64,000 nt of DNA, from positions 4,141,645-4,205,644 of the forward strand of contig NC_085861.1 of assembly GCF_034702125.1 (NCBI RefSeq). The letters are read 5' to 3'. This document shows, piece after piece, positions 7,308-12,137 of this stretch. Within the stretch, counting starts at the first letter, position 1. Each line of letters opens with the position of its first letter. This DNA is from Engraulis encrasicolus. Lineage: Eukaryota > Chordata > Actinopteri > Clupeiformes > Engraulidae. Below the pieces are notes generated by a model that worked only from the letters and a program-made list of their open reading frames with translations, was not told where the DNA came from and searched no databases. The position numbers and the translations under genes are program-made.

Positions 7308-7862
7308 GTAACGCCGCATTATGTAATAACGGTGCAATATGTAATAATGTAACAAATTATTACATAATGTGGTGACAATCGCCGCATTGTGTAATAATTT
7401 ACGCATTTCGTAATACATTTCTTGAACGCATTTCGTAATAACTTTTTTCTCATCTTGTAATAAATTATTACAAAATGCGAAATTTATTACGGAATGCGGC
7501 CGCAACTTTTTTTTTTGATGGAAATGTAATAACATGGTGCATTATGTAATAATCTATATGGATATGTTTTTTCTGCACTTGGATTCAGTAGGCGCAGCAC
7601 ACATACATAGTCTCAGTGACATGGTATAGTCACTGCCCTCTCTCTCTCTCATTCTTCTCAGTTCTCAAACTGCTCGAGAGTCGCGAATGATGCGGTTAAA
7701 ACCGTTAAGAAATAATTTCACAACTTGTTGCGTGCAACGAGTCCAACGAATGTCTCGCACTTTCTGCTACATTACACCAATTTACAGCGACATTAAATAG
7801 GCCAGGTCTAAACACTTCACGAGGAGGTGAAAACTTGTCTTGCACTTGCGTGGGTCTGTGGC

Positions 7863-7978
7863 GAGAGAGAGAGAGAGAGAGAGAGAGAGAGAGAGAGAGA
7901 GAGAGAGAGAGAGAGAGAGAGAGAGAGAGTGTGTGTGTGTGTGTGTGTGTGTGTGTGTGTGTGTGTGTGTGTGTGTGT
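7863..7978. repeat. (GA)n-(GT)n compound microsatellite
   Basis: About 66 bp of GA followed by about 50 bp of GT without interruption. It is present only in the left foldback arm. Confidence 0.97.
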
Positions 7979-9126
7979 ACGCACGGAGACAAACCTGGCC
8001 CATATTGATCTTAAGCCCCATCTTGGCTCTTTGGAAATATTCTTAACATTACAAAGGCTATTTTAATATTTTCCCCCAAACAACATGAATCAAATCCCAG
8101 GAAAAGACCAACCATTATAAGTGACTCGTGGGGAGCTGTCCATGCTGGTGGTGCTTAATTTTTCCCGATATTTGCCCGTGGAGTAGTGAGTCTTTCATGT
8201 CTGCCTACATGCGCGCCAGGGTCTGACCATGGTGCTTTTTGCCCGTGGAGTGAGGAGACTGTCTTCTTGCAAAGCAAGAAGTCATAGCACCCGAGAAAAA
8301 TGCCACTCTTTGTCATATTTTCAATTTCAGTCCACTGTTCAGTAGGCCTATTAGGCTGCAATCAAATTCAATAGCCTATGCTCATCCACATGCACGCGAA
8401 AAACAATAACCCAAGCGGCGGGACTAATTCGATTATATTCCTTCCAAAAATGTCCGAACGTCACAAAAATCAGTTATTTGCATTGTCCGTAATTATACCA
8501 AACAAAAAGGTATCAATAAAAGAAATCAAGTCTTCAGTTTCGATAATCCACGTTACAAATCCTCAACAACAGCAAGCCATTCCTTCTCTGCTATGAAGCA
8601 GGCAACGGAACAAGTGCAGACAGTAGGCTATATGACCACGTTGATGCTGCACGGCTTGAAAGGATTCTGTCTAAATTAAATATCTTGAATAGCCTATATA
8701 GACCTAGGCCTAACTAGATTTGTTGCAATACAGATTCATTTTCTATAGCCAGAAGTGTTCCGTTGGACTGACGAAACCGAACACGATCAAGTTTGCAACT
8801 TCTTTCCCTCATGCGCTGTCCGTCAGCACCACCTGTCATCAGACGTCCGATTAGCTTTCATTACGTGCTGAGGGAAAAACTCTCGCCATTAGGCCCATGT
8901 GCTGTTGCACTGTTGTGAGGGATATCACCAAATAATTTAGATAAAAGTCAGAACATTATTTTGGCAATCTGTTCAGTCTGTTCATTTAAGTTTTTGGGTG
9001 CTCTTGGATATCGGGGATCAGTTCATGTAGAGAGAAGAGTTCATCCAGGCACTCCAAAATAAGGTGTCCAAACGGGAAGTTACATTAAAAAGCCTTTAAT
9101 GGTACTGGGCTGGGGTTACATTAAAA

Positions 9127-9166
9127 AGCCGACATGTTTCGACCTCACCAGGTCTTCATCAGGGCT
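9127..9166 (-). ncRNA. Hammerhead ribozyme motif (Penelope type)
   Basis: On the minus strand the order is AGCC (stem I 5'), CUGAUGA core, GACC-UGGUGA-GGUC stem-loop II, GAAA core, a two-base-pair stem III (A-U, C-G around AU), the GUC cleavage triplet, then GGCU (stem I 3'). All invariant core nucleotides are present. It lies 265 bp downstream of the GIY-YIG stop codon on the same strand, as described for minimal type I hammerheads in Penelope-like elements. Predicted cleavage is between 9131 and 9130. Activity is inferred. Confidence 0.8.
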
Positions 9167-9430
9167 ACGTTCACCATTGAAAAGAAAGGCCTCCCTTAAA
9201 TAGTGACATCACCACATGTGACCCATTACGCACTAAACACATTTGCGCACACCAGAGAAAACAAAGATTAAAAAATAGCCTGGGGTAATAAGTGATGCCA
9301 CAGAAAAAAATGACCAGAAGTACAAATAAGCATCACAAAAAACAAGTAAAATCAATATCCTCATTTAGACCAGGATAGCGCATGGCATCCAGTTGGTGTA
9401 TCCAAAAAGTCTGCCTCTGATTAAGTCTTT

Positions 9431-10413
9431 TTAGCCTGTCCCCACCCCTCGGAAGAGGTTTGATATGCTCGACGCCCTGTATGCGCAACAGAGAATCATT
9501 TTTACCATGGTATATTCATTGAAATGTTTCGCCATGGGATAGTCAAAATTGCCCACTCTGATAGCATACAGGTATTTATGTTCTGCTAGCCTATCTCGCA
9601 TGCGCCTTTTTGTGCGTCCGATATAAAACAACCCTTCAGCGCAAGGACAAGTTAGGCGGTATATGACAAATGTAGAATTGCAATTAATGAAATCTCTCTG
9701 TCCGTATTCTCTCGTGGTTTTAGTATCCACAAAAGATTTGGCTTGTGTAACATTTGGGCAGTGAGGGCAGTTCATACATCTATAGGTGCCAATAGGTTTA
9801 CGCAGCCAGGTTTCTCTCTTTTTCACCTGTAGATGAGAGCGCATTAATTTATCTCCTAGGATGGGTGCACTCTTTAAAGACACCATGGGTGGTTCTGGGA
9901 ACACCTCACGTAGTTGCGCATCACTTTCAATAATGGACCAATTGTTCTTAATAATTTGCCTGATCCGCGTCGCTTGTGTACTATATGTCGTAACAAAAAA
10001 AGGACGAGACTGCTGGTGGCGATGATGTTTCTTTTTGGTCAATAACGTGTTGCGTTGAAGGGAGCGCGCTTCACTGTATGCGTTTTGGATGGCTTTAGGG
10101 TGATAGGCTCTATCACTGAATCTTTTCTCCATCAGCTCGGCCTGCTCGTGAAAATCATTTTCGAAATCACAGATACGCCTAATCTCTGGAATTGGCCGTG
10201 TGGAATATTTCTAATGAGATGCGGGGGATGGAATGAATCCGCTCTCAGAATGGTGTTCCGAGAGGTCGCCTTTCTGAATAAGGTGGTGTGCAACTGTCCC
10301 TCCGCGTCTTTATATATCGTCAAATCCAGAAAGTGAATATTAGTTAATGAATATTCCAAGGAAGCCACCCAAAACGCATACAGTGAAGCGCGCTCCCTAC
10401 AACGCAACACGTT
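9431..10413 (-). pseudogene. Penelope-like RT C-terminus and GIY-YIG nuclease
   Basis: The upstream part (10365-10170) encodes FLDLTIYKDAEG and SFHPPHLIRNIPHGQFQRL, typical of the region after the Penelope RT palm. A frameshift near 10170 separates it from a 233-codon open frame. That frame holds a cysteine pair region (CMNCPHCPNV) and the GIY-YIG nuclease core LFYIGRTKRRMRDRLAEH with its conserved Gly, Tyr and Arg. It ends SNLFRGVGTG. The RT catalytic domain is missing, so the copy is 5'-truncated. In intact elements the nuclease nicks DNA for target-primed reverse transcription. Confidence 0.85.
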
Positions 10414-10816
10414 ATTGACCAAAAACAAACATCATCGCCAGCAGCAGTCCCGTCCTTTTTTTGTTACGACAGTTCTCAGATGTATGAACTGCCCCCACTG
10501 TCCAAATGTTACACAAGCCAAATCTTTTGTGGATACTAAAACCACGAATGAATATGGACAGAGAGATTTCATTAATTGCAATTCTACATTTGTCATATAC
10601 CGCCTAACTTGTCCTCGCGCTGAAGGGTTCTTTTATATCGGGCGCACAAAAAGGCGCATGCGAGATAGGCTAGCAGAACATAAATATGGTATCAGAGTGG
10701 GCAATTTTGACTATCCCATGGCGAAACATATGAATACCATGGTAAAAATGATTCTCTGCTGCGCATACAGGGCGTCGAGCATATCAAACCTCTTCCGAGG
10801 GGTGGGGACAGGCTAA
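10366..10816 (+). pseudogene. Second, inverted Penelope GIY-YIG copy
   Basis: A 133-codon open frame (10415-10816) repeats the gene at 9431-10132 in the opposite orientation. It keeps CMNCPHCPNV, FFYIGRTKRRMRDRLAEH and the SNLFRGVGTG end. About 63 residues between the SRPFFVTT segment and the cysteine region are deleted in frame, with smaller in-frame losses after RLAEHKY and before TMVK. It starts later than the minus-strand copy, so the two truncated genes face away from each other around 10366. Confidence 0.82.
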
Positions 10817-11073
10817 AAAGACTTAGGCCTAATCAGAGGCAGACTTTTTGGATACACCAACTGGATGCCATGCGCTATACTGGTCTAAATGAGGATATTG
10901 ATTTTACTTGTTTTTTGTGATTTTTATTTGTACTTCTGGTCATTTTTTCTGTGGCATCACTTATTACCCCAGGCTATTTTTAATCTTTGTTTTCTATGGT
11001 GTGCGCAAATGTGTGTAGTGCGTAATGGGTCACATGTGGTGATGTCACTATTTAAGGGAGGCCTTTCTTTTCA

Positions 11074-11108
11074 ATGATGAAGACCTGGTGAGGTCGAAAC
11101 ATGTCGGC
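11074..11108 (+). pseudogene. Broken hammerhead motif in right foldback arm
   Basis: It retains UGAUGA, the GACC/GGUC stem II, GAAA, ACAUGU stem III and the GUC triplet, but a 15-bp deletion between AATG repeats removed the 5' strand of stem I and the first core C. It should therefore not self-cleave as the left-arm copy may. Confidence 0.75.
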
Positions 11109-12137
11109 TTTTTAATGTAACCCCAGCCCAGTACCATTAAAGGCTTTTTAATGTAACTTATCGTTTGGGCACCTTATTTTGGAGTGCCTGGATGAACTCT
11201 TCTCTCTACATGAACTGATCCCCGATATCCAAGAGCACCCAAAAGCTTAAATGAACAGACTGAAGACTGCTTGAGCTTCCAGCCACCTGTGTGCCTTTCA
11301 TTGCCAAAATAATGTTCTGACTTTTATCTAAATTATTTGGTGATATCCCTCACAACAGTGCAACAGCACATAGGCCTAATGGCGGGAGTTTTTCCCTCAG
11401 CACGTAATGAAAGCTAATCGGACGTCTAATGACAGGTGGTGCTGACGGACAGCGCACGAGGGAAAGAAGTTGCAAACTTGATCGTGTTCGGTTTCGTCAG
11501 TCCAGCGGAACACTTCTGGCTCTAGAAAATGAATCTGTATTGCAACAAATCTAGTTAGGCCTAGGTCTATATAGGCTATCCAAGATATTTAATTTAGATA
11601 TTTAATTTAGTTTTCACCACCTCGTGAAGTGTTTAGACCTGGCCTATTTAATGTCGCTGTAAATTGGTGTAATGTAGCAGAAAGTGCTAGACGTTCGTTG
11701 GACTCGTTGCACGCAACAAGTTGTGAAATTATTTCTTAACGGTTTTAACCGCATCATTCGCGACTCTCGAGCAGTTTGAGAACTGAGAAGAACGAGAGAG
11801 AGAGAGGGCAGTGACTATACCATGTCACTGAGACTATGTGTGTGTGCTGCGCCTACTGAATCCAAGTGCAGAAAAAACATATCCATATAGATTATTACAT
11901 AATGCACCATCTTATTACATTTCCATCAAAAAAAAAAAGTTGCGGCCGCATTCCGTAATAAATTTCGCATTTTGTAATAATTTATTACAAGATGAGAAAA
12001 AAGTTATTACGAAATGCGTTCAAGAAATGTATTACGAAATGCGTAAATTATTACATAATGCGGCGATTGTCACCACATTATGTAATAATTTGTTACATTA
12101 TTACATATTGCACCGTTATTACATAATGCGGCGTTAC

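What the first reader, a model, noticed from the sequence alone, without database searches (positions are those of the whole stretch)
7308..12137. 4.83-kb foldback insertion with two outward-facing Penelope genes
Long inverted arms, a clear short target duplication and two truncated GIY-YIG genes diverging from the centre form one mobile unit. It hit the zinc knuckle of a LINE. Neither a plain Penelope insertion nor a plain foldback transposon explains both the arms and the coding content.
Basis: partly seen in the sequence, partly recalled or inferred. Interest (0 to 1): 0.82.

Follow-up and report, generated by a model that had tools for sequence, protein, structure and literature searches.

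The report
Mirrored DNA transposon carrying Penelope pieces
A jumping DNA element picked up pieces of an unrelated retrotransposon, became a mirror image of itself, and spread through a fish-like genome; relatives without the pieces are still there, so much of its history can be read.

Summary
The unit is window 7307-12138 (4,832 bp), TGTAACGCCGC...GCGGCGTTACA, flanked by ACATA, one base longer at each end than reported. It interrupts the zinc-binding stretch of a LINE. It moves as a whole: its terminal 22-mer occurs 364 times in the host genome, and 20 of 22 copies examined at both ends have 4- or 5-bp target duplications. The centre is two 5'-truncated Penelope (PLE) 3' ends joined head to head; this exact join occurs 126 times, pointing to one founder. 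Other forms coexist: 22 places with the empty PLE site (one element read end to end, not palindromic), symmetric palindromes of about 5.5-5.6 kb (one centre read), and the window's asymmetric 4.8-kb type. Both PLE ends lie against the same flank in mirror image, without direct duplication; two ordinary PLE pairs read for comparison have different flanks with direct repeats of about 9 bp. Best reading: a non-autonomous TIR transposon, probably moved by an integrase-like (Ginger-like) transposase that was not found, took a PLE insertion; one half was mirrored and the palindrome amplified. The GIY-YIG frames look like passengers. New variant of a known kind.

The parts
7302..7306 (.). left copy of the 5-bp target duplication, ACATA
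7307..12138 (.). whole mobile unit, 4,832 bp, TGTAACGCC...GGCGTTACA
7307..7835 (.). left terminal inverted repeat (529 bp); 10 subterminal GCATTNNGTAATAA-like sites at 7316-7552
7836..8669 (.). 834 bp present only in the left arm, including a GA/GT microsatellite; part of it is in both arms of copy L029
8670..8968 (.). mirrored non-PLE arm segment; ends at the PLE insertion point (empty site seen in L049 and L043)
8972..10362 (-). left 5'-truncated PLE copy, 3' end outward, last ~32 bp of the PLE 3' end lost
9434..10210 (-). open frame of 259 aa with GIY-YIG region, C-terminus frameshifted relative to L037
10350..10366 (+). head-to-head PLE join AATATTCCAAGGAAGCC (2-bp overlap of the two PLE copies); 126 exact occurrences in the genome
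10361..11300 (+). right 5'-truncated PLE copy with internal deletion of about 205 bp, complete 3' end ...GTGTGCCTTTCA
10337..10816 (+). open frame of 159 aa with GIY-YIG region (weak T5orf172 match, below its cut-off)
11301..11598 (.). mirrored non-PLE arm segment of the right arm
11609..12138 (.). right terminal inverted repeat (530 bp); 10 subterminal motif sites at 11892-12129
12139..12143 (.). right copy of the target duplication ACATA
5113..7306 (+). 5' part of the interrupted LINE frame (RVT_1, start of a weak zf-RVT match)
12144..12766 (+). 3' part of the interrupted LINE frame to its stop

Best explanation
This is a non-autonomous cut-and-paste DNA transposon with long terminal inverted repeats whose interior was rebuilt around a Penelope-like (PLE) insertion. 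Steps: (1) an element of about 5.2-6.5 kb with TG...CA ends and no PLE spread in this genome (relatives of this kind exist; one was read end to end and is not palindromic); (2) a PLE inserted beside its AAT microsatellite (shown by empty and filled sites); (3) the element half on one side of the PLE was mirrored onto the other side, giving a symmetric palindrome of about 5.5-5.6 kb with a head-to-head PLE pair in the middle (the state is shown; the copying process, probably a repair or replication template switch within the PLE, is inferred); (4) one palindrome lost 834 bp of one arm and gained frameshifts, and this 4.8-kb form became the largest size class in the sample classified; (5) it is moved in trans by a transposase that cuts 4 or 5 bp apart and acts on TG/CA ends, most likely an integrase-like enzyme of the Ginger type (inferred; no transposase gene was found). 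The PLE protein is not needed for this movement, since PLE-free copies with the same ends have moved too.
For: Whole-unit movement: the 22-bp end occurs 180 times forward and 184 reverse, control 0. In the first 100 listed places of 364, 39 pairs face each other correctly, 22 ends are unpaired, and no neighbouring ends within 15 kb are wrongly oriented. Of 22 copies with both ends read, 15 have a 5-bp duplication, 5 a 4-bp one (read from the printed flanks) and 2 none (L011, L050). One founder: the head-to-head PLE join is identical in 126 places, control 0, and arm-specific frameshifts recur in the copies translated. Empty site: L049 and L043 read (AAT)n-ATTGCCAAAATAATG where filled copies read ...GCCTTTCA-TTGCCAAAATAATG; 22 exact empty sites and 189 exact filled ones. 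L049 carries element positions 1-1662 contiguously at 91% without PLE, its inverted repeats are mainly the terminal 0.6 kb, and it has target duplication GCCTA. Mirroring: both PLE 3' ends face the same flank inverted, without direct duplication, in L054; ordinary PLE pairs L037 and L038 have different flanks with direct repeats of about 9 bp, read by eye. Types among the 39 pairs: 25 with one exact filled junction (13 of them 4.76-4.96 kb), 4 with two, 5 with the empty site, 5 with neither.
Against: No autonomous partner was found, so the transposase class rests on ends and duplication length only; the frames scanned from PLE-free L049 and L050 gave no transposase match. No intermediate with the PLE pair in an otherwise unmirrored element was shown: a search for the AAT repeat within 20 bp of the reversed PLE 3' end found 0. 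The best candidate, C1:20875000-20883700, has the same PLE join and an unmirrored left flank, but that flank is a dispersed sequence cut 2 bp from the PLE end, so it may be a truncated palindrome. That the empty form is ancestral and not a later product is inferred from structure, not from a dated tree. Right-arm PLE changes exceed left-arm ones (22 to 7; 16 to 7 after dropping badly aligned columns), which a simple clock after mirroring does not predict.
Confidence: 0.78

Rival explanations
1. The palindrome was made directly by the PLE: its two 3' ends were each primed on a broken end of the same transposon site (two sister copies), so the head-to-head pair joined two identical halves into a mirror image in one step.
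For: Head-to-head pairs of this PLE recur here (L037 and L038 read; further diverging pairs in the coordinates), and PMC3846280 (passages read) calls head-to-head the most frequently observed inverted arrangement. Mirrored flanks start exactly at the PLE 3' ends, without direct duplication. No copy with the AAT side beside the PLE pair was found.
Against: Not seen at the two ordinary PLE pairs read (both have different flanks and direct repeats). A later template switch gives the same product.
Confidence: 0.22
2. A single, one-way PLE insertion was mirrored together with its flank by a fold-back template switch inside the PLE; the head-to-head join is then the switch point, not a PLE product.
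For: Two-base overlap at the join, equal to the median microhomology reported for template switches in PMC8277862 (passages read). The 266-bp spacer continues only one arm, as in fold-back duplications (general knowledge).
Against: The join looks like the common head-to-head habit of PLEs, so a coincidence is needed. No single-orientation precursor was shown.
Confidence: 0.33
3. The whole unit is a Penelope element with unusual long inverted ends, moved by its own reverse transcriptase and GIY-YIG nuclease.
For: PLEs often carry inverted terminal copies (PMC3846280, passages read). The centre is PLE-derived.
Against: PLE similarity stops at 8972 and 11300. PLE-free copies with the same ends exist. 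Duplications are 4-5 bp with exact TG/CA ends, not about 9 bp. The PLE reverse transcriptase part was not seen in the element copies read.
Confidence: 0.03
4. The palindrome is an assembly artefact.
For: Palindromes are error-prone in assembly (general knowledge).
Against: 18 copies with both ends at different loci, 17 with a 4- or 5-bp duplication, and 126 identical joins.
Confidence: 0.01

Closest known systems
Ginger1 / Ginger2-Tdd DNA transposons
   Same: Ends fit TGTNR; Ginger1 makes 4-bp, Ginger2/Tdd 4- or 5-bp duplications (PMC2836005 and PMC10045372, passages read); inverted terminal repeats.
   Different: No transposase here; TIR (529 bp) longer than the 40-270 bp (Ginger1) and 50-180 bp (Ginger2) reported; by eye no CCGG or RTATAY target preference among the duplications seen.
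Foldback-type elements (Drosophila FB, Galileo)
   Same: Very long inverted repeats, many copies without transposase, structural variation attributed to gap repair and template switching (PMC4168063, passages read).
   Different: Galileo belongs to the P superfamily by its transposase; this element has TG...CA ends and 4-5 bp duplications, and its palindrome centre is a retroelement pair.
Pack-TIR elements
   Same: TIR transposon that acquired foreign sequence, in some cases amplified by later transposition (PMC8277862, passages read).
   Different: The cargo arrived as an identifiable retrotransposon insertion and the element was mirrored around it.
Penelope-like elements with head-to-head inverted copies
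   Same: Centre: 5'-truncated PLE copies, 3' ends outward (arrangement described in PMC3846280, passages read).
   Different: Flanks are mirror images and the unit moves by its outer TIRs.

Membership tests
Ginger superfamily | Gypsy-integrase-like transposase | tested here: not met
   None recognised in the translated copies (by eye) or in the fragments scanned; the autonomous partner was not found, so this speaks only to these copies
Ginger superfamily | TGTNR termini | tested here: met
   TGTAA...TTACA in 21 of 22 copies with both ends; L021 begins CGTAAC
Ginger superfamily | 4- or 5-bp target duplication | tested here: met
   15 five-bp, 5 four-bp, 2 none of 22
Ginger superfamily | target preference (CCGG for Ginger1, RTATAY for Ginger2) | tested here: inconclusive
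   not apparent by eye; no formal test
Foldback-type element (structural class) | long inverted repeats making up most of the element, no transposase | tested here: met
Penelope-like element (whole unit) | RT plus GIY-YIG protein | tested here: not met
   only the 3' part is present; RT lies upstream of the truncation in L037
Penelope-like element (central piece) | homology to a longer PLE with RT | tested here: met
   95.3% (left) and 91.8-94.6% (right pieces) to L037, whose 741-aa frame matches RVT_1 at 6e-07
Penelope-like element (whole unit) | boundaries set by PLE ends with PLE-type duplication | tested here: not met
   unit ends lie 0.8 and 1.7 kb outside the PLE

The most novel reading that the evidence does not exclude
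Penelope elements can create foldback transposons: their habit of inserting as head-to-head pairs with two outward 3' ends can join two identical transposon ends, or seed a template switch, so that an ordinary TIR transposon becomes a palindrome that then amplifies. If general, part of the foldback elements in animal genomes would have retroelement pairs at or near their centres.
Probability: 0.3. Interest if true: 0.68.

Novelty: new variant of a known kind. Interest (0 to 1): 0.5.

Why it matters
How palindromic (foldback) transposons arise is usually guessed from end products. Here a PLE-free non-palindromic relative, the empty site, the symmetric palindrome and the derived asymmetric form coexist in one genome, so the order of events can be tested. 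It also shows a retrotransposon fragment, with open GIY-YIG frames, multiplied to more than a hundred copies by an unrelated DNA transposon.

Tried and rejected
Considered and rejected: unit moved by PLE (PLE-free relatives have the same ends); 7-bp duplication AACATAT in the window (other copies show 4-5 bp and TG/CA ends); the long copies as the autonomous element (extra length in L010, L011 and L021 and in the 13-kb copy on C7 is inserted sequence: a palindromic insert, a Tc1-type frame, a LINE-type frame and an LTR element with pol, named by eye; the extra in L019 and L024 was not identified). Coding selection on the 259-aa frame: 13 copies aligned, L020 skipped for gaps, 12 counted; 11 silent, 14 replacement, 0 stop distinct changes against 27/69/3% expected; too few to claim, and three of the 12 have gaps in the frame. 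Rfam gave only matches far below gathering scores. Within-element TIR divergence is like that between elements (1.9% and 1.75%, 18 copies), so no sign of within-copy homogenisation. The outer 264 bp fold better as a single DNA strand than shuffles (z -4.4), as expected of a repeat array in both orientations; nothing was built on it. Literature: the listings of searches showed no title or abstract describing a PLE pair inside a TIR palindrome; subscription papers and Repbase are not held. No integrase-family scan was run, because LTR elements would swamp it.
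Full report
Setting. The window is C5:4141645-4205644 of a 1.43-Gb genome in 1,880 contigs. Chromosome-sized contigs of 52-60 Mb among those fetched and a named salmonid protein among the relatives of the PLE frame (Salvelinus fontinalis, 52% identity) suggest a teleost; this is inference.

The observation. Inverted arms run inward from 7307 and 12138. The exact ends are TGTAACGCCGCATTATG and CATAATGCGGCGTTACA, flanked by ACATA on both sides. Each outer 250 bp holds 10 sites like GCATTNNGTAATAA; 20 of the window's 27 matches lie there, against 9.9 expected for the whole 64 kb. Such arrays are typical of transposase binding regions (general knowledge; not tested). The element splits a LINE frame: RVT_1 at 5e-17 and a weak, cut-off zf-RVT match; without the element and one ACATA the frame reads through ...LCPLCQKAGTLEHILSCC... 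to a stop.

It moves as a unit. A search with the outer 293 bp gave 40 scored matches of 516 candidates, each at 100% identity as rounded; these best matches are therefore a sample of the most similar copies. Twenty regions were fetched; 17 held both ends, and L022, L023 and L027 one. With the window this makes 18 copies. Twelve of 18 have perfect 5-bp duplications, five have 4-bp ones (L013, L014, L015, L021, L025), and L011 has none. Four further copies (L029, L030, L049, L050) add three 5-bp duplications and one without. The exact 22-bp end occurs 180 times forward and 184 reverse, none for the reversed control. Of the first 100 listed places, 78 form 39 correctly facing pairs of 2.6-13 kb and 22 are unpaired.

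The centre is Penelope. The 259-aa frame has 148 matches in the genome. L037 contains a 741-aa frame with RVT_1 at 6e-07 followed by the same region. Against L037 the element's PLE similarity covers window 8972-10362 (minus) and 10361-11300 (plus), starting at two 5' truncation points that differ by 267 bp and overlap by 2 bp at the join. The C-terminal parts are frameshifted differently in the two arms in the 4.8-kb-type copies translated, while the frames in L054 are not. So the window's frames are broken ends of a PLE protein, best read as passengers.

Ordinary PLE pairs. Two PLE head-to-head pairs outside the element were fetched. L037 has CTTATATAT on both sides, L038 has ATAGTGAAA (read by eye). 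Their left and right flanks are otherwise unrelated. Coordinates suggest further diverging pairs (C5, C11, C13), not fetched. The literature calls head-to-head the most frequently observed inverted arrangement in PLEs and gives duplications of 8-10 bp in several copies (PMC3846280, passages read).

Mirrored flanks. In the element the sequence beyond each PLE 3' end is the same, inverted: ATTGCCAAAATAATGTTCTGAC..., for about 299 bp and then the 529-bp TIR. There is no direct duplication. In the consensus of 13 copies the TIRs differ at 3 of 529 positions; arm segment plus PLE differ at 37 of 1,202 aligned positions, a count that includes some badly aligned columns beside the join and the deletion. 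Relative to ordinary PLEs, 22 changes were counted as shared by both arms, 22 as right-only and 7 as left-only. A recheck leaves 16 right-only after dropping badly aligned columns, and 7 of the 22 shared columns lie past the PLE end, so about 15 are real. Copies differ from each other by 0.4-1.0% in seven of eight segments; the left PLE segment shows 3.7%, probably because of badly aligned copies. So the arms separated before the burst.

The empty site. L049 (C1:28467751-28473424, 5.67 kb, duplication GCCTA) carries element positions 1-1662 contiguously at 91% but no PLE, and its other end shares mainly the TIR. Where the PLE would start it has an AAT repeat: (AAT)n-ATTGCCAAAATAATG; L043 agrees. 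Exact counts: 22 empty and 189 filled. L050 has the ends but not the arm interior and no clean duplication.

The symmetric form. In one search eight pairs of filled junctions among the 100 listed places lie back to back 2.36-2.38 kb apart. One, L054 (C14:19959940-19962400), was fetched: same PLE join, same deletion of about 200 bp, both PLE 3' ends complete, flanks mirrored, PLE C-termini not frameshifted. Only its centre was read; that both arms are long is inferred from the spacing of ends in pairs such as C1:24472386-24477982. L029, a 2.58-kb copy, has element positions 530-905 in both arms and keeps nine bases of the PLE tip, so it looks like a deletion product of such a form. The window's 4.8-kb type therefore lost 834 bp from one arm and about 32 bp from the left PLE end. 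Among the 39 pairs: 25 with one exact filled junction (13 of them 4.76-4.96 kb), 4 with two, 5 with the empty site, 5 with neither (only listed C1-C8 places of each pattern were used).

An unresolved copy. C1:20875000-20883700 has the same PLE join, lacks the deletion of about 205 bp and has a full right arm, so it seems to have branched early; its left PLE 3' end abuts a dispersed sequence also found at C5 and C6 (92% and 83%), with two bases between. It is either a relic from before mirroring or a palindrome that lost its left arm.

How it works. Shown: whole-unit mobility, one identical PLE join in 126 places, PLE-free relatives, empty site, mirrored flanks, deletions of the window type relative to L054. 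Inferred: that the empty form is ancestral; template switch or end joining as the mirroring step; an integrase-like transposase acting in trans. TG/CA ends with 4-5 bp duplications fit Ginger-type enzymes (PMC2836005, PMC10045372, passages read), but without a transposase the element is not filed as a Ginger. Gap repair with template switching is given as a source of defective Galileo copies (PMC4168063) and of Pack-TIRs (PMC8277862; passages read in both).

Verdict. The kind is known (non-autonomous foldback-type TIR transposon with captured sequence); the retroelement pair at the dyad and the series of coexisting forms make it an unusually clear variant.

Noticed in passing
window 5177-5327 and 12902-13101: The interrupted LINE lies between two pentanucleotide arrays (ACTCT and CTACT), suggesting a LINE that targets this microsatellite or carries it at its ends.
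   Followed up: no
L037, L038; C5:42468352-42474516, C11:7041283-7046761, C13:644246-647713: Long Penelope copies in this genome recur in head-to-head diverging pairs (coordinates); only L037 and L038 were read.
   Followed up: partly
L021:1283-1648 (minus), outside the element: Peptide resembling the P-element/THAP9 transposase core by eye and from recall; no Pfam match.
   Followed up: no
L055, L056 and left flank near C1:20879125: A dispersed sequence (87% between L055 and L056) broken two bases from a Penelope 3' end in the C1 copy.
   Followed up: partly
L010, element positions 1064-4016: The 8-kb copy contains a second palindromic insertion of about 2.96 kb (96% self-complementary).
   Followed up: no
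L049:2354-2653 and 4613-4880: The PLE-free relative carries an internal direct repeat (78%) of a piece that the window has at about 8268-8559; origin unknown.
   Followed up: no
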